A DNA stretch of 64,000 nucleotides from Wuchereria bancrofti (lineage: Eukaryota; Nematoda; Chromadorea; Rhabditida; Onchocercidae), in assembly GCA_005281725.1 (NCBI GenBank), contig SSBO01000012.1, positions 9,922,080 to 9,986,079 on the forward strand. Reading direction: 5' to 3'. The notes below the pieces were generated by a model. The model did no database searches. It had not been told where the DNA came from and saw only the letters and a program-made list of their open reading frames with translations. The translations under genes and the position numbers were made by a program. Below, piece by piece: positions 3,351-55,242 of this stretch; the first letter of the stretch is position 1, and each line of letters opens with the position of its first letter.

Positions 3351-5939
3351 TAAAGCGTTAAAAATTGTAACAGTTAACATTTTTGAAAATGAATAAATGC
3401 TTTTAGACAGAATTAATATTCTTCGTTTTTTTTTCGAATTATTTTTTTTCTCGAATTGTTTAAAAACCTTTTTCTTTAGCTTATATTCAATGCATTACAT
3501 AATCAATCATTTCCGGAATTTTAGTACTAACTTATTCATCTTGCATCAACCGAAACTTTACTGATACATAAAATTTGCATAATATTATGTGGAATTAAAA
3601 AAAAAATTTAGTTCAATTTTTTTACCATAATTTAACGGAATTGATATTTAAAAAGGTATTATAAGTGAAGCTAGTAATTATAGGAATAAATGGGTTTGAG
3701 GTAATTAGTGAAGTAATGTAAACTGATTTTCAAAAAAATGGTTAAATATGGATTTTTAGCGACAAATAATTTCTAAGGATTGAATGCGAAAAAAAAGAGA
3801 GAATGATTTCATTCCGTATCCGTTCTTATTCCGGAAAAAAATAAAAAAGGAGACAAAGAGAGGAGAGAGGAAGAAAAATGAAGAATGATGATAATAAAAG
3901 ATTGAAATATAGCGCTAATTTAAAAAAATGAGTCAATACTTACTTTTCATCATATCATCCATGAGAAAAGATAATTTTACATATTATATTTTAATTTAAA
4001 TTGATTAACATAAGAAAAGATCAATTTGAAATGAATGTATTTCAAATAAATAAAAAGAAAAAAGCCAATGATGAACTTTCACAATGCAAAAACAATTAAC
4101 CAGAAATTTTAATAAATGAAATGAAATAAGAATTAGAATAAAAAAGAACTAAAATAACGAAATTCAACTTATTAAAATAATGAAAGAACAAAAGAAATAA
4201 AATGAAACAGGGAGAAAAAAAAAAGAAGGAAGAAGCGAAAAATAAAATCTCAAAATCTAAGAATAAGAAAGAATTAAACTGAGCAATAATCTAGCAACCA
4301 CAATAAAACTGTACTTCGCCTTCTACCTTCCTCTTTTCTGCCTGTACTTCTTCCCTCCCTTCTGCACTATTCTCAATTCAATCAAGTTAATTCATTGGTA
4401 CAAACATTTCTTGAAGATGGCGTAAAATTGAATTTCATAATAAAAAAAGAAGAACAAAAAAGAAAGAGAGAAAAAAGAAGAAAATCAGTCGTTGAACATT
4501 TTTCGTAATTTGATGAATGACTGATGAAATTTTTCGATGCTTCTTATAATGGTTTAAAAAATTTTCCAAAAATTTCGAATATTTCAGTAGAAAATTTTAG
4601 GGGAGAAAAAAAAACATTTTTTTTCGATTATTCAACAAACTACCANTAAAGCGTTAAAAATTGTAACAGTTAACATTTTTGAAAATGAATAAATGCTTTT
4701 AGACAGAATTAATATTCTTCGTTTTTTTTTCGAATTATTTTTTTTCTCGAATTGTTTAAAAACCTTTTTCTTTAGCTTATATTCAATGCATTACATAATC
4801 AATCATTTCCGGAATTTTAGTACTAACTTATTCATCTTGCATCAACCGAAACTTTACTGATACATAAAATTTGCATAATATTATGTGGAATTAAAAAAAA
4901 AATTTAGTTCAATTTTTTTACCATAATTTAACGGAATTGATATTTAAAAAGGTATTATAAGTGAAGCTAGTAATTATAGGAATAAATGGGTTTGAGGTAA
5001 TTAGTGAAGTAATGTAAACTGATTTTCAAAAAAATGGTTAAATATGGATTTTTAGCGACAAATAATTTCTAAGGATTGAATGCGAAAAAAAAGAGAGAAT
5101 GATTTCATTCCGTATCCGTTCTTATTCCGGAAAAAAATAAAAAAGGAGACAAAGAGAGGAGAGAGGAAGAAAAATGAAGAATGATGATAATAAAAGATTG
5201 AAATATAGCGCTAATTTAAAAAAATGAGTCAATACTTACTTTTCATCATATCATCCATGAGAAAAGATAATTTTACATATTATATTTTAATTTAAATTGA
5301 TTAACATAAGAAAAGATCAATTTGAAATGAATGTATTTCAAATAAATAAAAAGAAAAAAGCCAATGATGAACTTTCACAATGCAAAAACAATTAACCAGA
5401 AATTTTAATAAATGAAATGAAATAAGAATTAGAATAAAAAAGAACTAAAATAACGAAATTCAACTTATTAAAATAATGAAAGAACAAAAGAAATAAAATG
5501 AAACAGGGAGAAAAAAAAAAGAAGGAAGAAGCGAAAAATAAAATCTCAAAATCTAAGAATAAGAAAGAATTAAACTGAGCAATAATCTAGCAACCACAAT
5601 AAAACTGTACTTCGCCTTCTACCTTCCTCTTTTCTGCCTGTACTTCTTCCCTCCCTTCTGCACTATTCTCAATTCAATCAAGTTAATTCATTGGTACAAA
5701 CATTTCTTGAAGATGGCGTAAAATTGAATTTCATAATAAAAAAAGAAGAACAAAAAAGAAAGAGAGAAAAAAGAAGAAAATCAGTCGTTGAACATTTTTC
5801 GTAATTTGATGAATGACTGATGAAATTTTTCGATGCTTCTTATAATGGTTTAAAAAATTTTCCAAAAATTTCGAATATTTCAGTAGAAAATTTTAGGGGA
5901 GAAAAAAAAACATTTTTTTTCGATTATTCAACAAACTAC

Positions 5940-5941
<2 letters not shown>
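3351..5941. repeat. Direct duplication across gap N4646 (2 x 1,295 bp)
   Basis: Copy 1 is 3351-4645, the N is at 4646 and copy 2 is 4647-5941. The offset is a constant 1,296 bp wherever I compared. Copy 1 stops exactly where copy 2 enters a run of 30 A (5941-5970), a classic place for a contig to break. The duplicated sequence is AT-rich and non-coding as far as I can see; a slightly GC-richer patch (copy 2, 5,580-5,690) gives no supported exon. Confidence 0.9.
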
Positions 5942-5970
<29 letters not shown>

Positions 5971-19990: not shown

Positions 19991-20158
19991 TGTCGCCACA
20001 ATGGCGAAGCTATGATGTAATGAACAAAGATTACTGTTTTAAGTGATTTTAATCTACTTTGTAACCTTAACATCTGTCGCCACAATGGCGAAGCTATGAT
20101 GTAATGAACAAAGAGTATTGTTTTAAGTGATTTTAATCTACTTTGTAACCTTAACATC
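19991..20158 (+). repeat. Tandem duplication, 2 x 84 bp
   Basis: Copies 19991-20074 and 20075-20158 differ at about three positions. Each carries the small hairpin CGCCACAATGGCG. Confidence 0.9.
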
Positions 20159-23500: not shown

Positions 23501-24050
23501 ATTACATTAGATAACGATAGTCTCATATATAGTTGCTGGGGAAATTAGAAAGTGAATGCTAAAATTCACTTATTAGGCTCTTTTTAAAGGTTTAGAACTA
23601 ATATCTATCAATAGTGATTAACTTGTTAAAATACATTTAAGTTTAAAACTGACACTAAAGATACCTGTTGTTTTCAATTTCAACATTTAGTATAACAAGA
23701 AAATAAATGAGCCAAAATTTCAATCCAATAAATTGTAATTTAGGATTTTTCAAATGACAATATATTTGTTTCTTTTATTAGGTATTCTAAATTTTAATCG
23801 CTATTATATGCTGACTGAAAAAATTTTAAATTTTCAAATATTTCTGGAAGAATTTTAAAAATCATTTCAAGTCAATTTTTACTTCAATAAAAGAAAAATC
23901 ACTCCAACTAAGTGATATTGCAATCAAATGTTATATTCATAATTAATTTCAGTTACAAATTTTTTTTCAAAAAATTAGAAAAATTTTATTTACCATACAT
24001 CCCATCTAATACATATTGAATGGAAATCAGTATACAGAATATAAAAATTT
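20555..24050. other. AT-rich sequence, no gene seen
   Basis: No coding-like frame or RNA gene recognised. A pair of related sentences, TGATAATACGT...TTTCCT (22,165-22,260 and 22,330-22,430 in opposite orientation), hints at an old inverted duplication about CGTATTATCACT. Confidence 0.45.
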
Positions 24051-24160
24051 ACTGGCTCTCTCAAATGATAAGGGCACAATGCTGTGGTGCTTGTATACAT
24101 GCAAGCACTTATATGTAATTTTAAAGACAAAATTTCATTTTTCAATCAAAAAAAGACCAA

Positions 24161-24241
24161 CTTATGGATATATGTAAGCGTAACCACTTATATAAGCATA
24201 AATGCTTATATAAGCACAAACGCCTAGCATATATCCATAAG
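24161..24241. repeat. 81-bp hairpin-forming inverted repeat
   Basis: Outer arms CTTATGGATATATG (24161-24174) and CATATATCCATAAG (24228-24241) pair perfectly over 14 bp. Inner arms CTTATATAAGCAT (24187-24199) and ATGCTTATATAAG (24202-24214) pair over 13 bp. A 12/13-nt partly complementary internal loop lies between. A looser relative lies at about 24,275-24,325. Confidence 0.8.
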
Positions 24242-24329
24242 CTCCAATTTTGATATTTTAAAGCAAAACGTCAAACTTATAGATGCATGAAAACGCTAAC
24301 GCTTTATATATACTCCATAAGTTCGACTC

Positions 24330-31529: not shown

Positions 31530-32302
31530 TATAACATTGAAATTTGGAAAGCATAAAAAAGTATAAACTTATGAAGATATATAAAACTGCTTCAAGCTCA
31601 TTCTTGGAATCTCGACTTAATTCGAAACCCCAAGCTTACTTAAAAGTAGGTTCACAATGAGAAAATAAGGTACAACATCAATCAGAAAATAAGGTACAAC
31701 ATCAATTATCGTCGAAAATGATCTGAAATCTGAAAACACTGTAAATATATGTGTTTGCTAAACCTAAGAGATACAAAATTTTCGCAGCTATTCCTTTAAA
31801 ATTTTCTCCTCCTTCCTGATAATGAAAAAGTTGGTAACAACAACCGCAAAACATTTATCTTCCTTGCATCAGAATTATCCGGTCATTTTAGCCCTATGCA
31901 TTTCTATTTGGGAAAAGTGTGAAGCAATTACTGTAATAAGATAAAGTCGCTTATGCATATTTTCAAATACCAACCAATCAACTCTATCATTTAATTTACC
32001 CACTTCTTACGTTTATGCTGCGTCGTTTGTTGTGCACAATTAATCCTAAAACTTAATATATTTTAAAATACTTTCCAGATGCTACTTTCAAAAACACAGA
32101 ATATTACAAAAACGTACCAAACAAAAGCGCTTCAAAAAACAAAAACAACACCCAAACAATAACAAAAAGGCCAATGTGTTCATTGATTTTAAGAAAGAAA
32201 AAAGGGCAGACTAACAAATCTGATGATGCATACAATTGCTATCACGACCATAAAAACATGTTTGTCAAGACCCGCCTTTATCAAATATGCCAGTTTTAAT
32301 GA
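31530..32302. other. 3' flank of PA2G4
   Basis: AT-rich; no exon recognised. The PA2G4 transcript must end here on the minus strand. Confidence 0.4.
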
Positions 32303-35300
32303 TCAGCTGTTTTTTTCTTGTACGGTTTTCACACTATCCCTATTATTAGATAACACAGATTTCTTATCCAAATTCCGAATCTTCAAATTCACACTTTGGA
32401 TATCAACATTCCCTTCCTTTTCCATAATACCATCTTTCTTCTGAGCACCATTATTCTCATCTTTCTTATCACTTTTCGGCTTCTTTTTTGCTTTTTTAGG
32501 TTTCAGTGAGGAGTTTAATAAAGATGTGATCTGGAAAATGATCCGTAATGGAATGTTATCATGATTTTATTGAAATCAAAAATTGAAAACATTTTCCAGG
32601 TACCTTTCTGAAATACTTCAGTGATACCCCAACCATAAATTTCAGATCTCACTATAATTTTCAAGGAAGCGCTCATTAATCATGTTCATTGAAAATCGAA
32701 GTGAACTGAAAACTTATTCCAAGCTCCAAAGTAAATAGCTGAATCAGAATATTTGTTTTGTCTAAAAAACCAACCAACTGATCCTCGATCTTTATATCGC
32801 TTTCTAGTGTATTCATATCAATAGGAAATCCAGTAATCTTCAATAATCCATTAGGCATGATTAATACCGTAGATTTGAACTGCGCCACATATTCACCATC
32901 TCGTTCATAGAAAACCTAAAGATTTATTCTCTGATTATCACACCAATTTCACTATTTCTAAAGAACGGACGAATTAGTTATGATAGTCAAAAAAAAGTAC
33001 ATTTGCTCAAGATAACTGAAAACTTCTCTTTGATGGTTTTCAAATCTTATATTCGTTTATCCAAAGTGTAACGAAAGTAAAACGAAAATAGGATAAGAAG
33101 CAGTATATATTAAGTATGACTCAGTAAAGTCATTGTAGCATTTTTTACTATACTCCCAAAAAAAAAAATGTTACTGTGCGAGTAGTTCCACCATGAAGCC
33201 TTAACCTCCACAAAATTTCCTACGCTGAAGGGAATTTACATTTCAAAGGATTTTGAAACAGCATTTATATCCAAGTCAATGTTTTGAAAAAATGAAAAGT
33301 GCTATGAGTGCTGTTATAAAAAAAAAACAAACCTGATATGGCCGCATTAGATTATGTCGTTCACATTCCACTACACCCATTTTCGCTAGCTTCTCATCCT
33401 CGAATGACCGTAAAGTGAATGGCATTAGTCCATATTTGTTCACCGCTGCCGATAAAAACATTCTGAAGCAAAAAACAATGTGAATCTAAGTAAAAAATCT
33501 AACTAAAAACATCTATTGTATTTTCTATTAACGAATGGTGACTGATTTTGTAGTTAACAACATTTCTGTTTAAATATGGAACCAGCGATAATGCTGGTTT
33601 GAATCAGAAGTTTAACTGAACTGAAATTTAAAAAAAAAATGTAAGAATGAAAAAAATAGGTAGTTCAATAAAAAGGATAATAACTTAAACAGTCAAAAGC
33701 AGTGAAAGTGTTCGAGAAAAACACTCTACAAAATTGCTTAATGTGTAAAGGAATGTAAGCATATTCAACATACCTTGACGCTTTAACTTTGAGTGAGTAA
33801 ACGAGATCATCCACTTTTTTATAAACTGTAGTTCTCGAATCCAGAATACGAGTTTTGCCTTAAATTTAGCAGTAGCTTATAATTTCTTAGGATGGCTAGA
33901 AAGAACGGCTACCAGTGTTTGAGTTAGATATTTGAAAAAATATAGGAAGGCAGCAAAACCATAAATTTTTATAGAATAAGACTGCTAAATGTGTGCTTGC
34001 TAATATCGTATCATAGAATAAGTGAGACTATTGCTTCTGCAATCATATGAGGGAAGAAGATGGGAGATTATCACAAACAGAAAAGTCTAAACGTAGTCAA
34101 CCGCAAAGAACAAAAATAAAACATTAAAAACAAAACAACAGACCTTCACCAGTGCTCATTAGAATATCAATAGCATACACTTCAAATTTTTCAAAACTAC
34201 ATTTCGTCATTTCGGAACGTTGCTTTTCACCAGGATTTTGAATAATCTGCTTCTCCCCATCAATCTTATTTTTCCTTAATTCATGCGACAGCATATTCTC
34301 AACTGGCCTTACCTGAAAATAAGAAAAACGGTCATTTTCATGGGAAAAACATAGAAAATATGCAACCAGACAAATGTATGATTTTTGGGAATACAGATTT
34401 TTTTAAAGATTATGACAGTAAAATGAAGGAAGTTGCGGTCGAATAAAGGAAATAAAGTTCAATAAGCCAGCAACGGCCAGCAATGACAAAAAAAAAATCT
34501 ATAATTCTACAGTCCGTTAGATAATACAAATCCCATTTCGACCATGTTAATAATTGAACTAAACTAATGGAAAACGATTCGCTTCTGTTCCGATCCGATA
34601 TAAAAATATTTCACGTCATTTAAAATGTATTTACTTTCATAAACCTTATATATATTTGCTATTTTATCGATCATATCTGTAATTTCCATGTTTTTATATA
34701 ACCCTGGACGAAGCATGCGAATTGCTGCTTCCATAGCATTGTACGCAGCAAGCATCACGTTTGCCATCCTGTCTTTTATTTTATTCTCCTGAATTGAAAT
34801 TCAAGATCAAACAATATCAAAACTAATTTGGTTCCAATCATTATTTCAAAACTCATGTGATTTAAGTTTACGAACTGTACTAATGAAATTTTGCCTGTGA
34901 CCAGAAATTAATAACTGTGGATGCTTTAACGATTTTAGTCTATTTTTGATGTAAAAGTTCCTCCAACGCATACACAACATTTATCAGGTGTGTTATCGCT
35001 GAAACATGAAGCTAAAAATTGCAACCGTACTGGAGAAGCTCCGACAACGACGGTGTGAGCAGCAGTTGCAATGAAACCATCAATGTGAGCTCCGAGATCA
35101 ATTTTCACCATTTGTCCATCCTTGATAATTATTGGTGGATCACTTCTCAATGGAGAAAAATGACACACACAATTGTTGATTGAAATACATGTTGGCATAG
35201 CGATACCTATAAAAGAATATCATGCAAGTACAACGAAAAGGTACGGTTAAATCTATGCCAATTGAAGAATAATTCAGTCCCATTAGCGAACCTAATCAAA

Positions 35301-35938
35301 GTAAACGACAGCTAGTCACAGAGCTATGGAATCAGATAAGAAACCTTATCAACCAATTTACTTATTAAATGAAAAATAATTATTAGTCTTAAGGGGATTC
35401 TAACTGTTAACAAGGGAAATGAAATAATGTGAAAATGTAATTGATATTGATTCATACAATAAAACTATTCCGATTATGAAAAATTGAAGACAAACATATA
35501 TTTTACCTTTCAAAGTATCTTTTTCCTTCTTAAAAACCTTTGCTATTCGCTCATTCATAAGCCTATCGCCGAGATCACAAATTTCACCTACTTCGACACC
35601 GTCTTTTGTAGCTGTTATCAGTTCCTACAACAAATTTTTGTTTCAGTTACACATTGCTTTAAAAGATATTTCTCCTATCCGGTATGTAACCATTTACCAT
35701 GTATAAGCCGATTCGACCTATTAAAACATTTTCTTTAATGCATTTGCATAGAGCAACATCAGATGTCATCAAGTGACTCTTGTGAACAGATAAAACTCAC
35801 TCTCAAGACAGCGTTAACGATATCGGCTGCCATTGCATATTTAGTCACGACTAAATCGCTTGCCGGTGTTTCCATAACACTTTTTTCATCATCACTACTT
35901 TCGCTACTTGGACTTGTCTGTCTTCCTTTCTCGGCCAT
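32303..35938 (-). CDS. PA2G4: Proliferation-associated protein 2G4 (EBP1) homologue, 9 exons, 442 aa
   Basis: Member of the catalytically inactive type 2 methionine-aminopeptidase ('pita-bread') fold. The family binds RNA and ribosomes and acts in growth and translation control in cytoplasm and nucleolus. Exons in transcript order: 35938-35801, 35624-35507, 35206-35031, 34788-34645, 34312-34144, 33858-33774, 33462-33333, 32915-32775, 32530-32303. The phases agree at every junction. Landmarks that match the family: [112 protein letters not shown]. The N terminus is about 14 residues longer than human PA2G4, with a Ser/Asp-rich head. The tail is Lys-rich ([14 protein letters not shown], as in the nucleolar-targeting tail of the human protein) and extends the total to 442 versus 394 residues. 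Splice sites are GT-AG; the exon 8 donor (GTTGGT) and exon 4 donor (GTTTAT) are weak. Identification is very secure. Confidence 0.96.
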
Positions 35939-35976
35939 TCCTCTAGATGAACTCAATGTTAGATTTAAGCACAATA

Positions 35977-35983
35977 CTGCAAC
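35977..35983 (-). promoter_or_regulatory. Probable trans-splice acceptor of the PA2G4 gene
   Basis: On the minus strand GTTGCAG ends 38 nt upstream of the PA2G4 start codon, with no recognisable exon further upstream. This fits spliced-leader addition. It could instead be a cis acceptor of an unseen 5' UTR exon. Confidence 0.3.
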
Positions 35984-37408
35984 ACAATTACACAGTCCGC
36001 GAAATTTGGAACCCGAATTTCCAGCACGAAAGTACTTTTGACTGGACCAGTAACTATTTCTTAAATATTAGTCTTTCACTACGAAATATAAGCAATACAA
36101 TATAAAGGTTATCAACAGATGATATTAAACTTGAGGTGAAAAAAATGAGCAATAATAAAAAAAACTGCTCAAAATCTAATGAAATGAACAGAAATTAACA
36201 AGTAAAAGGTAATGAAGTGAAGAAATATCAAGGAAAAGATTGAAAATATAAGCAAAATCTATATAAACAACTTTTGTCCATTTTAATACCTGATGAAACC
36301 ACAAAAAAAAAATAAGCAAAGCACTAAATATAATCAATGAAAAAATCTTTTCTCAATATTAATACTAGAAAAGGATACAGCAAAAGGAAAAAAAAACTCT
36401 TGAAATATTTCAAATTTAGACACTCAAATCCAAAATATTCCAATTTGGATAAATTTTTAAAAATTCCGAAATTTTCGTCACTTTTTAAATAAAAAGTTTA
36501 AATTTCAACTTTTGTCATAATTTTTAATTGCAACATATTTGTTTAGTACAAGTATCACGACGCAATTGTCAAATCATGTGAGTCAAAAAAAAAAAGAAAA
36601 CAAACAAATGAACAAACAGAAATAAGTAAATAAACAAATAAAATGGACAGACAAAGCAATCAGTAAATCCTACAAATTACAAACAGAACCATATCAACGA
36701 GGAATTATTGGTTGTTGAAAATTGGCAACATTCCAATTACAAAATCATAAAAAGCGTTGTAGGATTTTAATTTGTTCTACGTTTACTTATATCAGTATTG
36801 ATTTGTAGACGTGTAACGGCGTACGAAGTGTACGTGTTTTGTGCATTCCTCATATTTTATTCATTTAAACACTACTGAGGAATGTGAGTGAAATTTTTTT
36901 CAAATTAAATGTATAAATTGTGTTATGAGAGTTAGTTGAGAAATTTATAAGCGATGTTTTTTTTTCGTTTTTTAAAATCTAAAATTTACAATTGAGAAAT
37001 TTTCTTTCTTTTCTTTCTAAAATTGATCCAGTGAATTCGCAAAAAAATTTTTTTTTGGATTATGTTTTTTTTCTTTTTTTTGCGCCTGTTCTATTTATTT
37101 TCATTTTCCGTAGCCAACGTTTGTTTATTTGTTTTTTTATTCTTTTGTCATTATTTATTTTCATTACAATTGCAGATCAGTGTGACCGAACATATTTGTA
37201 GTTAAAATGATTAAATTCTGGTTTAAAATGTTGGACTGAGCATGAGCTCATGCAAAGTGCCACTCTGCACTTTTATTTCAAAATATCTTCAGCGCAGTCT
37301 AAGGTTAGTTATGTGTTACAAATAGATTTTGCTTAAAATGTTTAACTTCTTCCATAATTATTTATTCGTGCTACGCTTCAATTTGAATTCAATTTTTACA
37401 TATTTGCA
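35984..37408. promoter_or_regulatory. Divergent intergenic region between PA2G4 and the EDEM1-like gene
   Basis: The two start codons diverge and are about 1.5 kb apart, so both promoters (and outrons, if trans-spliced) must lie here. I see no clear TATA box or known operator. Base composition is AT-rich with T and A runs. A modestly GC-richer stretch (about 36,790-36,880) near a conserved-looking ATTTGTAGACGTGTAACGGC is the best place to look for a core promoter. Confidence 0.35.
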
Positions 37409-37445
37409 GTGCTGATCGCTTTAATAGAATATATTTTTCCTTCAG
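37402..37445 (+). promoter_or_regulatory. Two candidate trans-splice acceptors of the EDEM1-like gene
   Basis: ATTTGCAG ends at 37,409 and TTCCTTCAG ends at 37,445, respectively 60 and 23 nt upstream of the ATG at 37,469. Either could receive a spliced leader. The reading frame is open from 37,409 but contains no ATG before 37,469. Confidence 0.35.
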
Positions 37446-37468
37446 GTTTATTTGCAAGCATTGTGGTA

Positions 37469-40400
37469 ATGGTATGTCTCTTAGATCTTTTCGTATTATG
37501 GGCATTAGTAATGGTCATTACGGGTGCGGATGTCTATCCGTTTGTTCGTGATAGCTATACCTCGAAATATGGTTCTTTTACACCGGAAGAATTACTGGAG
37601 GCGAAAAAAGCAACGCGAGAAATGTTCTATTTTGCATATGAAAATTATATCCGGCATGCTTTTCCTATGGATGAATTGGATCCAATTAATTGTTCCGGTC
37701 GTGGCTATGACCATCTTCATCCGTAAGTTCTGCTGTTTTTTTTTCCGTGTTCTACTTGTTTTCAATGAAATTCTCGTGGAAGAAGAAGAGGAAGGAAAAA
37801 TTTCAAGTTTTCCCTAGAGTATTTAGAAAAGAAGTTCATTTAAATGTTAATGATTGTGCAGTTTTATTATCTTCATCTTGAAAAAATTTTCACATACACT
37901 TTTCTGCTTGTTTTTATAGTCTTTTTAGCGGTGTAGCATACCAGTTTTTCACATTTTGTATCCCGAAATACGCTTTTTATAGATCCAATATCAATATTAA
38001 CGATGTTCTTGGCGATTATTCACTTTCGTTGGTATGTTAACGTTTGTTCGGTAATGATGGCATTCAATGTTCCAAATAAAGCATGCGATATAAATAGAGA
38101 ACTGGTTTTTCATAATTATTATTTTCATAATCATGTCCCAATCCATGATTCATTTCTAGATTGAGTCGTTGGATACTCTGGTTGTTTTTGGGAATCGAAC
38201 TGAATTCCATAATGCTATTAGAATGGTGATCGATAACGTTTCCTTTGAGAGAAACGTTACAGTACAAGTGTTTGAAGCGACGATTAGGTTATTACACTTT
38301 TAAAATGATATGCAAATTGAATTATTCGCACATTTGCTTCTGAATATCATATTTTTCTGTGAAAGTAGTCGTAGCTTTACTATAACTCCACGAAATGTCA
38401 AGCATGTAATATAGCCATGTCCATTGACAGGCTAATAATGATAAACTAATTTAGGAGCTCACTTTTTTAAAAGAAATCTCGTCAGTATAAAAGCATTAGC
38501 TTTGTTGATGTTTGAGGTGATAATGGTTATTGGTGTTTTTTCGTTGTTTTCCGCATCCCAATGTCTTTCAACGTTTTTTTCAGGATAATCGGATCTCTTT
38601 TGTCAGCTCATCTGATCCTCACTGATGATTCCCATATGTTGGGTAATTACGCTCTAAGTGATTATGATGGAGAATTACTTACAATGGCACATGATTTGGC
38701 TATTCGTCTGTTACCAGCTTTTAAAGGCACTAAAACCGGTTAATTCACGTGTTATCATACTTGATCTTTAAACGTTAATTTTACTAAAAATCCTTACCCG
38801 CAAGATGTACAAAACTTTACATCTTTACACTTTACACATTCCAGGAATACCATTTCCACGGGTAAATCTGCAAAGTGGGGTGAAGGAAGGAACGATTAAC
38901 GAAAATTGTGTTGCTGGAGCCGGAAGTTTGTTACTGGAATTTACAGTTCTCTCACGTCTTTTGGGTGATGGTACATATGAAAGCTTGGCGCGCAAGACTA
39001 ATCGAAAGTTGTGGTCTTTGAGAAATAAAGTAACTGGTTTGTTGGGTTGGTACTGCTTTTTTTTGGTTTTATTAGCTGTAATCTTATCATTTAGCTTTAT
39101 GTTTATCTCTCTGTCATTTAGCTTTACCTAACATTATTTTCAGCTTTCCATACATAACTTAGTGCTTATATATCTTCAAATTTTATTATTGTAAGATTTT
39201 CTTCTTCCCTTTTTTTTTATAAGTCGTTTTTGTTTTTACACGTGTGCTCATTTTTCGAGATTTTCTCAAGTAAGCATCCTTTCAGGTAATGTCATAAACA
39301 TCCAAACAGGCGAGTGGAAAGGTGTAATCAGTGGACTTGGTGCAGGCCTTGATTCGTTTTATGAGTATTTGCTTAAAGCTTTCGTTCTTTTCGGTGTCGA
39401 GACGGATTTGAAGATGTTCCAGGTATTTTATGGTTTCATGAAATATTTTAACATAACAGTTTCCTTCTATAGCAAATTCAATTATTATTTTTGTGATATT
39501 TTAAAATTTAAAAATGAGAGAAACTTGCTACTCTGTTTTATTAGCTTTCTTTCTTAGTACTCCATTTGTTGTGGTTGACGAAAAAAAACCGTTCAGTATC
39601 TGAGAAAGTACAACGCAGAATACGGAATGTGAAATGAGACTTAACACTGCAGTTCATAATATTTTTCGTTTAACGGTAGTTAGCGCTATTAATGACATGA
39701 AGGAAGCAATGTTTTTGACAAATTTTTTATTTCAAAAAAAAGGCAGTATATTTATACACGTCGAAATATACAGGAAGCATATACGCTCATAATAAGTCAG
39801 TTACGACGTGGCCGTGATCGTTGCGTTTTAGGCGAGGGAGAAACGCCAATGTATGTAAACGTTGATATGCGAGATGGTTCACTACTAAATACCTGGATAG
39901 ATGCTTTACAAGTATGTTACATTCTACGTTTATGTGATCTTCGTTTCATTTCTCAGCCACTGTTATTTGTAATATGGTTGGGCAAATGATGATTTAACTT
40001 GAATTTTGACTTTTTCAAATGTTATTCGTTTACTTTAATATGTTACTGTTCACAGGCTAGTTTTGCTGCTGTTCAAGTATTGAATGGTGATATTGATGAA
40101 GCAGTTTGCATTCATGCCATATATTATTCATTGTGGAAGCGATATGATGCTCTTCCTGAACGATACAACTGGCATTTAAAGTAAGTGAAAATTACTTCCA
40201 CTGATTCATAGGTATTTCGTGATATTTCCATTAATTTAGAGTTTCTTTTCTTTCGTGCCTTCTGTAATTATGAATTTTCATGAAGAATAGTTACTTTGCA
40301 AAATATTTGACATGTGTTTTTTAAGGGTTCCTGATGTATATTTTTATCCGTTAAGACCGGAACTGGCTGAATCAACTTATATGTTGTATCGTGCCACACA

Positions 40401-42507: not shown

Positions 42508-45500
42508 AATTTAAAAAAAAGGAAAAGAAAATTGCATTAAGATTGTGTAACAAAACAAGATTTTGTCATACCAATGGAAAAGAAAATTTTGCTTTTTTTT
42601 TGTTTAAATAAGATCGCAGCAATGTACATTCTCTTCGTCTTCTTATTCTTATTTTATAAATATTTATATTTATAAGTAATTATCAATAATTAACATAAAT
42701 TATGTTAAAAAAAAAAGTAAACAGGAAAAAAAAGGAAAAAACGGAAAAAGAAGTGAAAATTTTCTTTTTTATATAAATTAATTTTTTTCTCTAATTTGGT
42801 CTTTTTCCTTCAATGTATTATTTTCACTTTTCTTAAATTTTTTTGCTATATTAAAGTGGGGATAATGTTAACAAATGAATAAATAATATAACGATTTGGA
42901 TTATATTGGTTATTTGCAAATATGAAATGGTTATTTGTATTAATATTATTTATCGCTAAGATGAGTAAGTTTTATTATAAAATTATTATTTTTTGATTTC
43001 TTTTTTTTTCTCCCTTTCATTCAGTAATTTTACTTATTAATCAATCGTTCATAATAAAATAAAATCTATTATAGGTCAAAGTGATAAACGATTGGTGTCA
43101 AATTTTGCTAACGAAATGGAAAAGTTTAATTCATTAGCATCAATTGATTCGAAAGAAATGATTATTGAAGGAAGTAATAATGAATATAAAGGTTAATAAT
43201 CATTTACACAAAAAAAAAATAAACAATTATTTATTTAAATTAAAATTTCTTAATTCAAATATTCAAAAAATAATATATCGTAAACGTAATATATAATATA
43301 TATCGTAAATATTCAAAAATAATATATCGTAAACGAAAACGTAATTAATGCAAACGAATATAAATTTTATAAAAAAAATGCATAAAATTAAATTGAAACT
43401 AAATCTAATGAATGAATATAATTAATAATTAATAAATAGTAATCAATTTAAATTTTTGTTAAACTTTTGTTTTTCATTCAAATTGTTTGTTTCAGTCAGT
43501 AAATGATGTTTAAATTTATGTCGATTAATATTTGTGTTTTGAGATGAAAGTATGAAAATTATTGTTACTCATCCCGATACTATTCATTCTACCAATATAC
43601 TAATTAACAAGCCAAATATTGGGATAAGTGATGGAAAAAAAGTAATTTTAAATTTGATGTCAAATTTAAACAATTTGGATGATTGCACCGGAATTTGTGA
43701 CAGGTAATTTAATTAAAATTCCAATACCATCCAATTTAAAATCATTTCTGAATTGAGCATTTTTAAATTTGCATTAATATATATTTATGCTATAATTATA
43801 GTCAATATTAATTTATGTTGTAATTATACATTTTCAAATTTACATTAATTAATATTTATTTATGTTACAACTACTTATGCTATAATTAGTTGTTATGAAA
43901 ATAGAAATATATTAATTGAATTTCTTTATTTCAATTTATTTTTTTTAAGTCTCAAATTTTGTACTTGCTTTGAAAGATTTTCCCTTTTTTTTGTTCGTAA
44001 TATTTTCATTTAATATATTCAAAAGTTATTAATTTATGTTATGCTAAAATTAATTATATTTTACAAATAAAAGTGAAATTTTTATGAATGAAAGTATTTT
44101 ATGCTATTTTTAATTTAAAATGAAATATAATGCAGCAAAAATAAATATTAATTAATGTGATTACATATACACTTTCTTTTTGTTAGTTTAAGAAAGAAAA
44201 AANAATTTAAAAAAAAGGAAAAGAAAATTGCATTAAGATTGTGTAACAAAACAAGATTTTGTCATACCAATGGAAAAGAAAATTTTGCTTTTTTTTTGTT
44301 TAAATAAGATCGCAGCAATGTACATTCTCTTCGTCTTCTTATTCTTATTTTATAAATATTTATATTTATAAGTAATTATCAATAATTAACATAAATTATG
44401 TTAAAAAAAAAAGTAAACAGGAAAAAAAAGGAAAAAACGGAAAAAGAAGTGAAAATTTTCTTTTTTATATAAATTAATTTTTTTCTCTAATTTGGTCTTT
44501 TTCCTTCAATGTATTATTTTCACTTTTCTTAAATTTTTTTGCTATATTAAAGTGGGGATAATGTTAACAAATGAATAAATAATATAACGATTTGGATTAT
44601 ATTGGTTATTTGCAAATATGAAATGGTTATTTGTATTAATATTATTTATCGCTAAGATGAGTAAGTTTTATTATAAAATTATTATTTTTTGATTTCTTTT
44701 TTTTTCTCCCTTTCATTCAGTAATTTTACTTATTAATCAATCGTTCATAATAAAATAAAATCTATTATAGGTCAAAGTGATAAACGATTGGTGTCAAATT
44801 TTGCTAACGAAATGGAAAAGTTTAATTCATTAGCATCAATTGATTCGAAAGAAATGATTATTGAAGGAAGTAATAATGAATATAAAGGTTAATAATCATT
44901 TACACAAAAAAAAAATAAACAATTATTTATTTAAATTAAAATTTCTTAATTCAAATATTCAAAAAATAATATATCGTAAACGTAATATATAATATATATC
45001 GTAAATATTCAAAAATAATATATCGTAAACGAAAACGTAATTAATGCAAACGAATATAAATTTTATAAAAAAAATGCATAAAATTAAATTGAAACTAAAT
45101 CTAATGAATGAATATAATTAATAATTAATAAATAGTAATCAATTTAAATTTTTGTTAAACTTTTGTTTTTCATTCAAATTGTTTGTTTCAGTCAGTAAAT
45201 GATGTTTAAATTTATGTCGATTAATATTTGTGTTTTGAGATGAAAGTATGAAAATTATTGTTACTCATCCCGATACTATTCATTCTACCAATATACTAAT
45301 TAACAAGCCAAATATTGGGATAAGTGATGGAAAAAAAGTAATTTTAAATTTGATGTCAAATTTAAACAATTTGGATGATTGCACCGGAATTTGTGACAGG
45401 TAATTTAATTAAAATTCCAATACCATCCAATTTAAAATCATTTCTGAATTGAGCATTTTTAAATTTGCATTAATATATATTTATGCTATAATTATAGTCA

Positions 45501-45898
45501 ATATTAATTTATGTTGTAATTATACATTTTCAAATTTACATTAATTAATATTTATTTATGTTACAACTACTTATGCTATAATTAGTTGTTATGAAAATAG
45601 AAATATATTAATTGAATTTCTTTATTTCAATTTATTTTTTTTAAGTCTCAAATTTTGTACTTGCTTTGAAAGATTTTCCCTTTTTTTTGTTCGTAATATT
45701 TTCATTTAATATATTCAAAAGTTATTAATTTATGTTATGCTAAAATTAATTATATTTTACAAATAAAAGTGAAATTTTTATGAATGAAAGTATTTTATGC
45801 TATTTTTAATTTAAAATGAAATATAATGCAGCAAAAATAAATATTAATTAATGTGATTACATATACACTTTCTTTTTGTTAGTTTAAGAAAGAAAAAA
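42508..45898. repeat. Direct duplication across gap N44203 (2 x 1,695 bp)
   Basis: Copy 1 is 42508-44202, the N is at 44203 and copy 2 is 44204-45898 (offset 1,696). It includes the first three exons of the channel gene. The break lies in an A-rich run. Confidence 0.9.
42922..43703 (+). other. Falsely duplicated copy of channel exons 1-3
   Basis: Exons 42922-42964, 43075-43191 and 43544-43703 repeat the channel's first three exons exactly 1,696 bp upstream of the copy that runs into the rest of the gene. This copy ends at the N at 44,203. It is most likely an unmerged contig end, not a real tandem exon duplication. Confidence 0.8.
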
Positions 45899-48800
45899 AA
45901 AATTTTGGATGTATTTGCAAATCTTTGATATTTTAAAATTTACAAAAAAAAAAGAAAACCAATGAATCAATTACATAATTTTATTATACTTTTATATTAA
46001 GCCATTATGGAAGTAGTTACATTTTACCAATTTTGCGTTCTATAAACTATGATAACAACACTGTACCTACTACATTTTCAGGTTTGTTTTTTCTTACTTC
46101 TTTTTCAAAATTTTTTCTATAAAATAATAGAAAAAGAACGAAAAAAATTATAAATTAAAACAAAACTTAAAATATGAAAAGAGAAGAAAAATTATTAAAA
46201 ATTAATGTATAACATATACTTTTGGAATGATCAAAAAAAGCCATTTTTTTTACGATATTGATTTAAAAAAAAAATTTTTTTTCTTAGTTTTCTTTTTTAG
46301 ATTTACCAGTTGATGTTAGTTTTGCTCTAAAGATTATTCATTTAGCTAATTTTGATTCAAAAAATATGGATTATTCCATCGGTAAGAAAATTTCATATTT
46401 GTGTTTATTTATTTATCTGTTTATTTATTTTATTTATTAGTAAAAGGAAATAAAATAATTTTTTTCAAACTTCAAAAGTTTATTTAATTTTTGTTTTTGT
46501 CTTTTTTGTTTTTTTAAGATTTTGAAATGCAAATGAGTTGGACTGATTCACGTTTGATGAACAATTATACAAAATGGATACGAATTTGGGAAAAAAGAAT
46601 TTTGGATCAAATATGGAAACCTGATCCGTATTTTGTTAATTCCAAACATTCACATTTCCATTATGTTTCATTTCCAAATTTTCGAATGCTAATAAGTCCA
46701 AATGGCTTAGTCATTTATACAATGAGGTGATATTTTTAAAGAAAAAAAGAGATTTCAGCAATAAAAATATTTATTATCAAGTGTATTTTCTTAATATTTT
46801 AAAATAGTTTACAAAATTTTTTTGAATTCTTTTTTTGTTTTATCATTTCTACAATATTATTAAATTTTTTTAAATTTATTAATTCTTATTTTGATCATTA
46901 ATTTTAATAAAACTTTTCATCATATCATTTAAGAATAACACTACAACCATCGTGTTACATGGTTTTTTGTCAATTTCCACATGATGATCAACAATGTCAA
47001 CTTATGATTAGTTCACGTTAGTTTCACATTCTTATGTACGCAAAGTTGAAGCAGTATAAGTTAGGTAAATAAATCTACGTAATGTTTTTAAGTGTAACAA
47101 ATTGCATTCTTTAATTTTAATCCTATCTTTTTTTTTCTTTTGGCCATTATTTTAAATAAGTGATTAAATTAATAATAAAAAATTTTCTAGACATTAAATG
47201 GTTTTTATAAATTTTTAAAAAATTATCAAATATTTAAAAAAAAAAAATTTATCAAAAAATATAAAAAAAATATATTTCTCCTTCCAATTCTTTTTCCACC
47301 AAAAATTTTTCATAACTAAACTTGAACTTTTAATTTTTTTCGTTTTTCTCTTCGTGAAACCAGGCAATAAGTTATTTTGAAATAATAGTTTAGATTTGAA
47401 TAGAAAGAAATAATAGTTTAAATTTGAATGAAAAAGAAAAAAAACGAAATGTATATAACTTTTAAAGTATCACATATACCATCAAGTGTTCGATTTTCTT
47501 GGCTTTCAACAAATTCAATAAATTTAATGTCAACACATCCGTCACCTGATTTCAATCTTGTATCCGTACATACGCATCATTGTGTTGTAGATGGAAAATT
47601 ATGTAAGCAATGTTTGAAATTTTAATTTATTTAAATTTATTCTTCTTAATTTTAATATAATTATGTAATTTTAAATATAATCAATATGATAAACATAAAA
47701 ATTCGAATGAAATATTTTCATGTATTAGACATATCACATGAAAATATATACACATATAGAAACATATAATAATAAAAAATAAATTTATTAATTATATTTT
47801 TAAATTTAATTTATGCTTTTTTTCATTCATATATTAAAGTATTACAACAAAAAAAAGTTTTCTTTTTTAAAAAATTCTGCATAAATTAGTTTTAATTTTT
47901 TCATATTTCACACGCAATTTCCATTAACAATTGAAATTAGTAAAAATGACAAAGTAAAAATTAACGATAAAATTTACTGGGATTGAAATGTAAATTAATT
48001 TTTGAAATAAATTTTTAATTTTTTTAAGTACCATCATCATGTCTTCGTGTTTTATTCAAATTAAAACGTACCGGTGCACGTTTTATCATTGAAAAATATA
48101 TACCAAGTTCATTAGCAATGTTTTTTGCATGGATTGCACCATTTGTACCATATAATTATGAGGAAGTACGAATTATTACACCAATCTCTGTTAGTTAAAT
48201 TCATTTTTATTTTCATTTTTTCATTTCAAATTTATTATTTGAAAAAAACAAAAAATTTTTAAACACTAAAACAAAAAAAAAAAGAGAAATATCCTTTTTA
48301 AATTTAAAAATTTTCTTTATTAATAAAGTAAATTAAAACAAAAAGTCTTTAAAAAATAATTAATTAATTAATTATATGATAAATATTTATTAATTGCTTT
48401 TTTTTAATGTACTTTTAACATTGGTACAAATGGAAAGAGGTGAAGAACATGTCCATATCAATTATATTACACCATTGGATATATGGTTTCGTGCGATGAA
48501 AATATTTACCGTTTTATCATTATTTGAATCAGTCGTCGTTTTAGCACTTATAAGAGCTACTAGAGCTATTGTAAAATTTTCACTCTTTTTTTTTTGTTTT
48601 GTTTCTTATTAAACTTTATTTAAGAAATTTTTTTTCACTTAATTAATTAATTAAAATAAATCGATTCTAATTAGAAGAAAAAATAGATTCTCAAGTATAT
48701 ATATATATCGTATATCATAGCTAACTAGCAATAATCATTATTCATTTTATGAAAAAAATAAGAATAATACTTAATAAAAAATGAGTAAGAAAATTTGTTA

Positions 48801-50826
48801 TTGTTATTATTATTTGTTATTTATTATTTTATTATTATTTATTATTATTATTGTTATTATTATTATTTGCAATTATATGAATCATAATAGTTTATATATA
48901 CAGCAATAATTTTTACAAATAGTGATAATAATATTAATTCTGAGAAAAAAGAACAAAAATTAAAATTTCAAGGGAAATTTAAAAAAAAAAACAAAATTAT
49001 AAAAGTTAAAGAATGATTTAAAAATTTAAAAAATTTTTTTTAGGAAAAACGACGTTTGGAAGCTGCAAATGAATTTGAACGTGAAATTTTTCGCGTAAAA
49101 AAACGACAAGTAATACGATTATATCANTCAATCTTGTATCCGTACATACGCATCATTGTGTTGTAGATGGAAAATTATGTAAGCAATGTTTGAAATTTTA
49201 ATTTATTTAAATTTATTCTTCTTAATTTTAATATAATTATGTAATTTTAAATATAATCAATATGATAAACATAAAAATTCGAATGAAATATTTTCATGTA
49301 TTAGACATATCACATGAAAATATATACACATATAGAAACATATAATAATAAAAAATAAATTTATTAATTATATTTTTAAATTTAATTTATGCTTTTTTTC
49401 ATTCATATATTAAAGTATTACAACAAAAAAAAGTTTTCTTTTTTAAAAAATTCTGCATAAATTAGTTTTAATTTTTTCATATTTCACACGCAATTTCCAT
49501 TAACAATTGAAATTAGTAAAAATGACAAAGTAAAAATTAACGATAAAATTTACTGGGATTGAAATGTAAATTAATTTTTGAAATAAATTTTTAATTTTTT
49601 TAAGTACCATCATCATGTCTTCGTGTTTTATTCAAATTAAAACGTACCGGTGCACGTTTTATCATTGAAAAATATATACCAAGTTCATTAGCAATGTTTT
49701 TTGCATGGATTGCACCATTTGTACCATATAATTATGAGGAAGTACGAATTATTACACCAATCTCTGTTAGTTAAATTCATTTTTATTTTCATTTTTTCAT
49801 TTCAAATTTATTATTTGAAAAAAACAAAAAATTTTTAAACACTAAAACAAAAAAAAAAAGAGAAATATCCTTTTTAAATTTAAAAATTTTCTTTATTAAT
49901 AAAGTAAATTAAAACAAAAAGTCTTTAAAAAATAATTAATTAATTAATTATATGATAAATATTTATTAATTGCTTTTTTTTAATGTACTTTTAACATTGG
50001 TACAAATGGAAAGAGGTGAAGAACATGTCCATATCAATTATATTACACCATTGGATATATGGTTTCGTGCGATGAAAATATTTACCGTTTTATCATTATT
50101 TGAATCAGTCGTCGTTTTAGCACTTATAAGAGCTACTAGAGCTATTGTAAAATTTTCACTCTTTTTTTTTTGTTTTGTTTCTTATTAAACTTTATTTAAG
50201 AAATTTTTTTTCACTTAATTAATTAATTAAAATAAATCGATTCTAATTAGAAGAAAAAATAGATTCTCAAGTATATATATATATCGTATATCATAGCTAA
50301 CTAGCAATAATCATTATTCATTTTATGAAAAAAATAAGAATAATACTTAATAAAAAATGAGTAAGAAAATTTGTTATTGTTATTATTATTTGTTATTTAT
50401 TATTTTATTATTATTTATTATTATTATTGTTATTATTATTATTTGCAATTATATGAATCATAATAGTTTATATATACAGCAATAATTTTTACAAATAGTG
50501 ATAATAATATTAATTCTGAGAAAAAAGAACAAAAATTAAAATTTCAAGGGAAATTTAAAAAAAAAAACAAAATTATAAAAGTTAAAGAATGATTTAAAAA
50601 TTTAAAAAATTTTTTTTAGGAAAAACGACGTTTGGAAGCTGCAAATGAATTTGAACGTGAAATTTTTCGCGTAAAAAAACGACAAGTAATACGATTATAT
50701 CAACGCTTGGATTATTTCACGCAAATTTTTTCACCTTTACTATTTGCAACATTCCTCATGTATTATATTATGAATGTTGTTCATGGCGAAGATAGTGATT
50801 GTAATGCAAATACAATTAATAATTAA
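44618..50826 (+). CDS. Divergent Cys-loop ligand-gated ion channel subunit, 11 exons, 478 aa
   Basis: Pentameric ligand-gated channel subunit of the plasma membrane. My model after removing duplicated copies: 44618-44660, 44771-44887, 45240-45399, 46002-46081, 46301-46381, 46519-46726, 46934-47016, 47468-47602, 49605-49765, 49985-50146, 50620-50826. Phases agree throughout. Signal peptide MKWLFVLILFIAKMSQS. Extracellular domain with WTDSRL and WKPDPYFVNSKHSHFH (loop A region). Cys-loop C237-C251 (CYMVFCQFPHDDQQC, 13 residues between). A second loop-C pair, C296-C307. M1 about 321-342 (IIEKYIPSSLAMFFAWIAPF). M2 about 350-370 (RIITPISVLLTLVQM). M3 about 380-404. Short basic M3-M4 loop of about 35 residues. 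M4 around YFTQIFSPLLFATFLMYYIM. The C296/C307 pair is typical of glycine/glutamate-gated anion channels. The PAR motif before M2 is replaced by EEVR. The ligand cannot be named. The exon 9/10 intron has no AG acceptor. Confidence 0.87.
48029..49126 (+). other. Falsely duplicated copy of channel exons 9, 10 and part of 11
   Basis: Exon 9 (48029-48189), exon 10 (48409-48570) and the first 83 nt of exon 11 (49044-49126) repeat the copy 1,576 bp downstream. Exon 11 is cut in mid-codon context by the N at 49,127. After the N the sequence restarts inside exon 8. A real duplication would not have both breaks at a gap character. Confidence 0.8.
48190..48408 (+). other. Channel intron 9 with no canonical AG acceptor
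   Basis: The donor after CCAATCTCT is GTTAGT. The reading frame and M2 alignment require the next exon to begin at GTACTTTTAACATTG (48409), which is preceded by TTTTTTTAAT. Other acceptors in this gene end TTTAAG, so a single G-to-T difference at 48,408 (49,984 in the other copy) explains the loss. Confidence 0.6.
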
Positions 50827-51917: not shown

Positions 51918-54900
51918 AAAAAATGCAGTTGATCTTTATTTTTAATAAAAAAAGAAACTAAAACTTAAGCTTTCGTGATAATTACAAATTTCCAAATAAT
52001 ATTTTCAACATTTCATGAAAAATTTTATTTTTAAATTCTGCTTTTTTCTTTTTAGAAAAAAAGATCCTAAAGTTCAAACCATCTAAATGGTTGATATTTG
52101 ACAATAAAAATATTTTTACGAATTTTAAATAAATGAATTGGAAGATGTTGTTCAGTTCAGAAAAGGTCAAACATTTTAAATCCCTGTCAATTTCTCACTT
52201 TCTCTGATTAATGGTATATTTTGCATATCAAAAAAAAACAATATTTACTATAACTAGAAAATTGACAAGTTTAAAATCAAATTGCTGAGTTGGTAATATT
52301 ATATTTGGTTATAAGTTGCGGTAGAAGTTAGCAATTAAATATTAAATTTCGATTCGATAAGAAAATATTAATGTGTTTCCATAAGATCATCTTTTTAAAA
52401 AAAAAAAAAAAAAATAATAATTATGATAAAAGTCTATTCCAGGTCAAAATGATAATGGATGAAATTTCAGTAACTTGATGAAAATTCAGAAATCAAGCAT
52501 ATTTTGCATATCAAATTCTACTTTAAAATATTGTAATATATATTTAAAAGCAAAAAAAATTATATTTAAAAATAAAAAACTAAAATATTATAATACATAT
52601 ATATTAAAATATCGCTATAAAATATTTCATCTTATTGCTAGAAAATTTTTTCGAAATTTTTTAATTCAAAAAATTTCGTATTGCTATCTCAATGATTGAA
52701 AGTTTTTTATATAGATGAAATCATTTAGCAAAAATGATTTTCCTCTTTAAAACATTTTGAGATAATTTAATCTTTTTTTTAATTGATAAAAATATCATAA
52801 ATATTGTTTCATATAACAAAAAAATTAATTCAACGATTGATCAATTTGCACTTGACAATTTGTTATCTGTTAAGTTCACATTGGGTAGGTATGAGTCAAT
52901 GGAAAATTATATTAGCAAAAATATTGTTCAGTTCAGATTTTGCATTTCTTTTTTATATATATCTATATTTTTTTTTGAAGTAAAATAATATAAAATCATA
53001 CATTTAAAGAATTTGAAAATTATTAATATAAATATTTAGAAATTTAAATTATTTTTATGATTTCTTTTAAAAGTAAAGAGATTAAATTATTTTTACAACT
53101 AGTTAGTAGTGAATATATAAGCATATTATTAATAAATAAATCTCCAATTTTTTAAAAATAATTCTTATTGTACTGTTAAATTAGTAAATAAATTTGTGTT
53201 AACATTCAAGTAAAAAATATCGACTAATATTTAATGTATTTATATTATACTTTTTCAAATTGGTATTTTTTTCATAATTCATTTCTTAATTCTTTTCACT
53301 TCCTAACAAATAAATAATAACTTTTCAAAAAAAAAAAAGAAAAACTTCAGTCTAAGAAATTATCAGAAATTCTGTAAATTTTTTAAATCTTTTACAGAAG
53401 ATATTTAGTAAAACATAAAACAATAATTCATGTCTCTTCAGTATTCTCTTCACTATTCACTAGTGAAGACTATAATAATAGTAATAATGGTAATAATGAT
53501 AAATAATAGTAAATAATTACTATTGCTATGATATACACTAACAATATAGGAACACTAACAATAATAATAATGATAATAANAAAAAATGCAGTTGATCTTT
53601 ATTTTTAATAAAAAAAGAAACTAAAACTTAAGCTTTCGTGATAATTACAAATTTCCAAATAATATTTTCAACATTTCATGAAAAATTTTATTTTTAAATT
53701 CTGCTTTTTTCTTTTTAGAAAAAAAGATCCTAAAGTTCAAACCATCTAAATGGTTGATATTTGACAATAAAAATATTTTTACGAATTTTAAATAAATGAA
53801 TTGGAAGATGTTGTTCAGTTCAGAAAAGGTCAAACATTTTAAATCCCTGTCAATTTCTCACTTTCTCTGATTAATGGTATATTTTGCATATCAAAAAAAA
53901 ACAATATTTACTATAACTAGAAAATTGACAAGTTTAAAATCAAATTGCTGAGTTGGTAATATTATATTTGGTTATAAGTTGCGGTAGAAGTTAGCAATTA
54001 AATATTAAATTTCGATTCGATAAGAAAATATTAATGTGTTTCCATAAGATCATCTTTTTAAAAAAAAAAAAAAAAAATAATAATTATGATAAAAGTCTAT
54101 TCCAGGTCAAAATGATAATGGATGAAATTTCAGTAACTTGATGAAAATTCAGAAATCAAGCATATTTTGCATATCAAATTCTACTTTAAAATATTGTAAT
54201 ATATATTTAAAAGCAAAAAAAATTATATTTAAAAATAAAAAACTAAAATATTATAATACATATATATTAAAATATCGCTATAAAATATTTCATCTTATTG
54301 CTAGAAAATTTTTTCGAAATTTTTTAATTCAAAAAATTTCGTATTGCTATCTCAATGATTGAAAGTTTTTTATATAGATGAAATCATTTAGCAAAAATGA
54401 TTTTCCTCTTTAAAACATTTTGAGATAATTTAATCTTTTTTTTAATTGATAAAAATATCATAAATATTGTTTCATATAACAAAAAAATTAATTCAACGAT
54501 TGATCAATTTGCACTTGACAATTTGTTATCTGTTAAGTTCACATTGGGTAGGTATGAGTCAATGGAAAATTATATTAGCAAAAATATTGTTCAGTTCAGA
54601 TTTTGCATTTCTTTTTTATATATATCTATATTTTTTTTTGAAGTAAAATAATATAAAATCATACATTTAAAGAATTTGAAAATTATTAATATAAATATTT
54701 AGAAATTTAAATTATTTTTATGATTTCTTTTAAAAGTAAAGAGATTAAATTATTTTTACAACTAGTTAGTAGTGAATATATAAGCATATTATTAATAAAT
54801 AAATCTCCAATTTTTTAAAAATAATTCTTATTGTACTGTTAAATTAGTAAATAAATTTGTGTTAACATTCAAGTAAAAAATATCGACTAATATTTAATGT

Positions 54901-55242
54901 ATTTATATTATACTTTTTCAAATTGGTATTTTTTTCATAATTCATTTCTTAATTCTTTTCACTTCCTAACAAATAAATAATAACTTTTCAAAAAAAAAAA
55001 AGAAAAACTTCAGTCTAAGAAATTATCAGAAATTCTGTAAATTTTTTAAATCTTTTACAGAAGATATTTAGTAAAACATAAAACAATAATTCATGTCTCT
55101 TCAGTATTCTCTTCACTATTCACTAGTGAAGACTATAATAATAGTAATAATGGTAATAATGATAAATAATAGTAAATAATTACTATTGCTATGATATACA
55201 CTAACAATATAGGAACACTAACAATAATAATAATGATAATAA
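51918..55242. repeat. Direct duplication across gap N53580 (2 x 1,662 bp)
   Basis: Copy 1 is 51918-53579, the N is at 53580 and copy 2 is 53581-55242 (offset 1,663). The break lies in an AAT-type microsatellite. Two chance reading frames are repeated with the same offset. I see no coding sequence within it. Confidence 0.9.

What the first reader, a model, noticed from the sequence alone, without database searches (positions are those of the whole stretch)
3351..55242. Four single-N gaps each separate apparently identical 1.3-1.7 kb direct copies: likely false duplications
Every N in the window (4646, 44203, 49127, 53580) is the exact centre of a direct duplication of 1,295, 1,695, 1,575 and 1,662 bp. 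The breaks fall at poly-A or AAT tracts. This is the signature of overlapping contig ends joined without merging. About 6.2 kb of the window is probably not real.
Basis: seen in the sequence. Interest (0 to 1): 0.75.

Follow-up and report, generated by a model that had tools for sequence, protein, structure and literature searches.

The report
False duplications from unmerged contig ends
Four stretches of this nematode genome assembly appear twice in a row almost certainly because the assembly software laid overlapping pieces end to end with a single N between them instead of merging them, so this is an assembly error and not biology.

Summary
In 264 kb of contiguous sequence (window plus 100 kb each side), 9 of 10 single-N gaps and the one 11-N gap are exact centres of identical direct copies; the tenth is a partly identical pair. 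All 9 exact adjacent duplications of period 100-3,000 bp contain an N. Three of the short ones are exactly 158 bp, as a fixed graph overlap would leave. A gene-level test agrees: pair 3 lies inside an ion-channel gene with one exon across each outer edge, and nematode homologues (Brugia pahangi about 96-99% identical within exons) carry one set of exons, in the order left flank, one copy, right flank. Read depth could not be tested. About 6.2 kb (9.7%) of the window is surplus. The artefact class is well known; interest is low, apart from a warning for gene annotation.

The parts
3351..4645 (.). pair 1, left copy (1,295 bp): right end of the upstream piece, stopping before an A run of about 30
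   Evidence: identical to 4647-5941, 0 mismatches; the only two full-length matches reported in the genome
4646..4646 (.). single-N spacer of pair 1
4647..5941 (.). pair 1, right copy: left end of the downstream piece
42508..44202 (.). pair 2, left copy (1,695 bp)
   Evidence: identical to 44204-45898; the only two full-length matches reported in the genome
44203..44203 (.). single-N spacer of pair 2
44204..45898 (.). pair 2, right copy
46518..47018 (+). ligand-binding-domain exons (46518-46727, about 46923-47015) of a Cys-loop ligand-gated ion-channel gene, in the left flank of pair 3
   Evidence: PF02931, E 1.9e-10 (above cut-off) and 2.6e-5 (24.2 bits, cut-off 26); Brugia pahangi P0001 residues 6-102
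47467..47601 (+). channel exon crossing the left edge of pair 3 at 47552; intact in left flank + left copy, truncated in the right copy (from 49130)
   Evidence: P0001 residues 103-147 matched across the edge
47552..49126 (.). pair 3, left copy (1,575 bp); holds channel exons at 48028-48195 and about 48409-48576
   Evidence: the only two full-length matches reported in the genome
49127..49127 (.). single-N spacer of pair 3; cuts the last channel exon of the left copy
49128..50702 (.). pair 3, right copy; the same exons at 49604-49771 and about 49985-50152
50620..50823 (+). channel exon (by position the last transmembrane segment; inferred) crossing the right edge of pair 3 at 50703; intact only in right copy + right flank
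   Evidence: 65 of 68 residues identical to P0001 247-314
51918..53579 (.). pair 4, left copy (1,662 bp), stopping in an AAT tract
   Evidence: identical to 53581-55242; the only two full-length matches reported in the genome
53580..53580 (.). single-N spacer of pair 4
53581..55242 (.). pair 4, right copy

Best explanation
Each pair is one genomic segment present twice by assembly error: two neighbouring assembled pieces share 1.3-1.7 kb at their ends, were placed side by side without merging the overlap, and were separated by one N. The true sequence is left flank, one copy, right flank. Shown here: exact identity, the N at the exact centre, recurrence at nearly all small gaps in 264 kb, and (pair 3) homologous proteins that fit one copy. 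Inferred: that the pieces were independently assembled contigs joined by a scaffolder that met a zero or negative gap, and that the 158-bp class is a k-1 overlap of a de Bruijn-type graph (k about 159). The stated confidence is for false duplication by unmerged overlap; the first two rivals below are other routes to the same false duplication.
For:: N exactly central, 0 mismatches in 6,227 bp; full-length matches reported only at these two adjacent places in an 86.5-Mb genome; in 264 kb, 9 of 10 single-N gaps and the 11-N gap are exact centres of identical direct copies (4 long; short ones of 158, 158, 158, 171, 176 and 150 bp); 9 of 9 exact adjacent duplications of period 100-3,000 contain an N; the B. 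pahangi channel protein is matched once through by left flank + one copy + right flank, with one exon crossing each outer edge and two truncated exon stubs flanking the N. In 6 of 14 homologues both edge-crossing exons are matched across the edges and the exons follow in a single pass; 14 of 14 homologues show no internal duplication (several are partial proteins); the 158-bp duplication at C12:9909869 doubles the same stretch of a PKC-like kinase core in frame. Literature: (passages).
Against: No read depth, read pairs or long reads could be examined. The gene-level test applies to pair 3 only; no coding exon was recognised at the edges of pairs 1, 2 and 4, which rest on the shared signature. 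For 8 of 14 homologues the match does not cross both edges: they are partial, too divergent or differently predicted. One single-N pair in the flank (C12:10028892) is not identical throughout: about 172 and 221 bp of unlike sequence lie between identical ends. One gap (2,068 N) has no flanking duplication. The copy sizes fall into two classes (150-176 and 1,295-1,695 bp) and only the short class has a ready explanation of its length. The scan sees exact copies only; diverged or shorter tandem repeats without an N exist (for example 84 bp x 2 at 19991).
Confidence: 0.97

Rival explanations
1. The copies are false, but arose in gap filling: both sides of a gap were extended through the same sequence by a gap-filling program that then failed to merge the two extensions and left one N. 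(A variant within the best explanation.)
For: Gives the same anatomy. GapFiller extends from both edges and counts a gap as closed only if the extensions overlap and the length fits the estimate (passages of PMC3446322). The long class has a narrow length range (1,295-1,695 bp).
Against: Does not by itself explain three copies of exactly 158 bp. The pair at C12:10028892 has two different middles, more like two separately assembled pieces.
Confidence: 0.2
2. Heterotype false duplication: the two copies are the two alleles of one locus laid in series. (A variant within the best explanation.)
For: The pair at C12:10028892 has identical ends and different middles, each with a single match in the genome. 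This is a known class (passages of PMC9516828).
Against: The four window pairs have 0 differences in 6,227 bp, so no allelic difference is visible there. A homozygous locus would look the same, so this cannot be fully excluded.
Confidence: 0.08
3. Real, very recent tandem duplications whose internal junction could not be assembled.
For: Real tandem duplications can be identical if very young.
Against: Exact copies of this size would have to occur at nearly every small gap and nowhere else in 264 kb, with a recurrent length of 158 bp, breaking exons at both edges of pair 3. They would also leave the intact gene only in the one-copy reading that relatives have.
Confidence: 0.02

Closest known systems
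Duplicated overlapping contigs (Kelley and Salzberg 2010, PMC2864568; passages seen)
   Same: Neighbouring contigs whose ends align to each other, giving an apparent very recent duplication that disappears when the contigs are joined.
   Different: There the cause discussed is divergent haplotypes and the test is mate-pair distances. Here the four window overlaps are 100% identical and no mate pairs were available.
Homotype false duplications beside assembly gaps (Ko et al. 2022, PMC9516828; passages seen)
   Same: Duplicated pair on one scaffold, separated by a gap, with exons duplicated inside a gene.
   Different: Depth and k-mer multiplicity, part of that definition, could not be measured here.
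Unmerged k-1 overlaps of de Bruijn contigs in scaffolds (PMC5368935; passages seen)
   Same: Contigs that share a fixed-length overlap, and a scaffolder (SOAPdenovo2 in that paper) that puts gaps between overlapping contigs. The three 158-bp copies outside the window look like this.
   Different: The 1.3-1.7-kb copies of the window are much longer and of four different lengths.

Membership tests
False duplication beside an assembly gap (Ko et al. 2022) | an assembly gap lies between the two copies | tested here: met
   single N exactly between the copies in 4 of 4 pairs; 9 of 10 single-N gaps plus the 11-N gap in 264 kb
False duplication beside an assembly gap (Ko et al. 2022) | read depth at or below haploid level over each copy | not testable with these tools
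   no reads are held
False duplication beside an assembly gap (Ko et al. 2022) | discordant read pairs between the copies | not testable with these tools
   no reads are held
False duplication beside an assembly gap (Ko et al. 2022) | homotype rather than heterotype (no haplotype-specific k-mers) | tested here: inconclusive
   0 differences in 6,227 bp fits homotype; k-mer multiplicity in reads not available
Duplicated overlapping contigs (Kelley and Salzberg 2010) | ends of neighbouring contigs align to each other | tested here: met
   copies abut the N on both sides and are identical from end to end (that each side is a separate contig is inferred from the N)
Duplicated overlapping contigs (Kelley and Salzberg 2010) | mate-pair distances fit better when the contigs are merged | not testable with these tools
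   no mate pairs are held
Unmerged k-1 overlap of de Bruijn contigs | overlaps of one fixed length | tested here: not met
   the window pairs have four different lengths, 1,295-1,695 bp; only three flank junctions share 158 bp
Real tandem segmental duplication | continuous sequence across the internal junction | tested here: not met
   an N at the junction in 4 of 4 pairs; in 9 of 9 exact adjacent duplications of period 100-3,000 bp in 264 kb
Cys-loop ligand-gated ion channel (gene across pair 3) | ligand-binding domain PF02931 and following transmembrane segments in order | tested here: met
   nematode homologues (one named LGC-43) and solved glycine and GABA receptors match the exons in order. 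By Pfam alone only exon 46518-46727 passes its cut-off; the second PF02931 exon and one PF02932 exon fall below it, and the other three exons have no relevant match

The most novel reading that the evidence does not exclude
One or more of the long pairs is a real, very young tandem duplication, for instance a duplication inside the ion-channel gene, that the assembler could not bridge.
Probability: 0.02. Interest if true: 0.35.

Novelty: not a real feature. Interest (0 to 1): 0.07.

Why it matters
It matters for users of this assembly only. About 6.2 kb of the window and about 8.5 kb of 264 kb (3.2%, counting the imperfect pair once) are surplus. The duplications break or double exons: an ion-channel gene at pair 3 and, outside the window, a PKC-like kinase whose 159-base period keeps the frame open, so that it could pass into gene models as an exon gain. 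Counts of recent tandem duplications, copy number and heterozygosity drawn from this assembly near single-N gaps should be treated with caution. The signature (1 N at the exact centre of identical copies) is easy to screen for.

Tried and rejected
Rejected: real tandem duplication. Rejected: dispersed repeat or mobile element. Searches report no other full-length match; only 40 of 267 and 40 of 87 candidates were scored and the tool skips simple repeats, so short partial matches are undercounted. Those partial matches are mostly to the TTA/AAT tracts inside the copies; one 129-bp match of 89% to pair 4 (C1:12280167) is not. Rejected: known RNA genes in the window (none at the thresholds used). 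The published B. malayi reference (PMC7181701, passages seen) gives an X of 24,943,668 bp and 29.4% GC; the contig holding the window is 24,139,319 bp and the 264 kb around it 25.3% GC, so it is probably not that assembly. The species, the assembly and the program were not identified. Paper searches for a program that writes one N for negative gaps gave related material only; the papers were seen as listings, apart from PMC9516828 and PMC7181701. That SSPACE writes a single n between contigs with a negative estimated gap is recalled, not seen. One search (last channel exon alone against solved structures) found nothing. (gapFinisher paper, passages) had nothing on this point.

Full report
What was claimed and what is there. 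The window has exactly four non-ACGT letters, single N at 4646, 44203, 49127 and 53580. Each lies exactly between two direct copies of 1,295, 1,695, 1,575 and 1,662 bp, with 0 mismatches in 6,227 compared positions; the copies touch the N on both sides. An independent repeat finder reports the same four families and no fifth direct repeat of 100 nt or more. The remark on poly-A and AAT breaks holds for the right-hand edge of three of the four pairs. Pair 3 breaks inside exons at both edges.

Where it lies. The window is C12:9922080-9986079 of an 86.5-Mb, 108-contig assembly; C12 is 24.14 Mb. The proteins point to a filarial nematode close to Wuchereria and Brugia. The left-flank exons of the ion-channel gene differ from a partial W. 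bancrofti protein (P0012, which ends before pair 3) only at the ends of the aligned exons, and the gene differs from a B. pahangi protein (P0001) at a few residues. The species was not pinned down.

Copies elsewhere. Searching the assembly with one copy of each pair reports full-length matches only at the two adjacent places. One search scored 5 of 5 candidates, 2 of 2, 40 of 267 and 40 of 87. Other matches are partial. Those are mostly to TTA or AAT tracts, with one 129-bp match of 89% on C1 as the exception. Whole copies are therefore not dispersed repeats.

Is it a property of gaps here? I fetched 100 kb on each side and examined 264 kb of contiguous sequence. It holds 12 N runs: ten single N, one of 11 N and one of 2,068 N. 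Nine of the ten single-N gaps and the 11-N gap are exact centres of identical direct copies: the four long ones of the window, and short ones of 158, 158, 158, 171, 176 and 150 bp (the last around 11 N). The tenth single N (C12:10028892) also lies between copies that touch it on both sides, of 1,330 and 1,379 bp. They share 570 of 570 bp at one end and 584 of 589 aligned columns at the other. Between these lie middles of 172 and 221 bp that were not aligned to each other, and a search of the genome with each finds only itself. The 2,068-N gap has no flanking duplication. Conversely, a scan of the 264 kb for exact adjacent duplications of period 100-3,000 bp finds nine, and all nine contain an N. 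The scan does not see diverged or shorter repeats; an 84-bp unit occurs twice at 97% without an N at 19991-20158. A further 12.4 kb from four other places (L003-L006) held no N, so nothing can be said about the rate elsewhere.

A test that does not use the N. Pair 3 lies in a gene for a Cys-loop ligand-gated ion channel. Pfam PF02931 is found in the left-flank exons, one above and one just below the cut-off. A composite of five exons from unbroken window DNA finds 14 nematode homologues, one named LGC-43, and solved glycine and GABA receptors. One exon crosses the left outer edge (47552) and another the right outer edge (50703). The B. pahangi protein of 314 residues is matched by exons in the left flank (residues 6-102), by the exon across the left edge (103-147), by two exons that occur in both copies (148-203 and 204-248), and by the exon across the right edge (247-314, 65 of 68 identical). 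Next to the N lie only cut-off stubs of the last exon and of the left-edge exon. Of 14 homologues, the left-edge exon is matched across the edge in 8, the right-edge exon across its edge in 9, and both in 6 (counted from its table). In those 6 the exons follow in one pass. None of the 14 has an internal duplication (several are partial proteins). The remaining proteins do not contradict this but do not test both edges. The B. pahangi model lacks some residues that my reading has before its residue 204 and may itself be an imperfect prediction; the order of exons is not affected.

A second protein-level case lies outside the window. The 158-bp copies at C12:9909869 hold a kinase exon on the minus strand. 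The period of 159 keeps the frame open, so the as-assembled reading has the same part of the kinase domain twice. Pfam Pkinase matches two stretches, while the best solved relative, PKC-theta, is matched by one copy. A MADD-like exon crosses the left edge of the imperfect pair at 10028892.

How it arises. The simplest account is that overlapping contig ends were placed next to each other and not merged, with one N as spacer. Such errors are described as duplicated overlapping contigs (PMC2864568, passages) and as homotype false duplications, with a gap between the copies and false exon gains (PMC9516828, passages). The three overlaps of exactly 158 bp suggest a fixed k-1 overlap (k about 159) of a de Bruijn-type assembler; contigs of such graphs overlap by k-1, and SOAPdenovo2 is reported to put gaps between overlapping contigs (PMC5368935, passages). 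That this happened here is inference. The long class of 1.3-1.7 kb needs another step, such as two-sided gap extension (GapFiller works from both edges, PMC3446322, passages) or contigs from a second assembly. That is not resolved.

Verdict. False duplication by unmerged overlap, confidence 0.97; which program step made it is open. Surplus in the window is 6,227 bp plus 4 N, 9.7%. It is an ordinary and well-described artefact, of use only as a warning for annotation of this assembly. Read depth, read pairs and spanning reads, which would settle it directly, were not available.

Noticed in passing
C12:10027562-10030271 (in L027), N at C12:10028892: A single-N pair whose copies share identical ends but carry unlike middles of 172 and 221 bp, each with one match in the genome; perhaps two alleles laid in series. 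One middle contains what looks like a short exon with splice sites (by eye). A MADD-like exon crosses the left edge.
   Followed up: partly
C12:9909711-9910027 (L021): 158-bp false duplication (period 159 with the N) that doubles part of a PKC-like kinase core in frame, so a gene predictor could accept it as an exon gain.
   Followed up: partly
264 kb around the window: Duplicated lengths at small gaps fall into two separate classes, 150-176 bp and 1,295-1,695 bp, with none between (11 junctions); the long class is not explained by a k-1 overlap.
   Followed up: no
window 24000-40000: G+C is about 32-33% against about 19-26% on either side. The stretch holds GH47 (alpha-mannosidase-like) matches at about 37.6-40.6 kb on the + strand and an M24 peptidase-like exon within 34.9-35.2 kb on the - strand, so it looks like a gene-dense block.
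   Followed up: partly
window 30168-30948: Inverted repeat with 248-nt arms, 96% complementary, 285 nt apart; not examined further.
   Followed up: no
window 19991-20158: 84-bp unit repeated twice in tandem at 97% match without an N, a genuine-looking short tandem repeat.
   Followed up: no
window 52268-52396 (and its copy in 53581-55242): 129 bp with an 89% match at C1:12280167-12280295, a possible short dispersed element inside pair 4.
   Followed up: no
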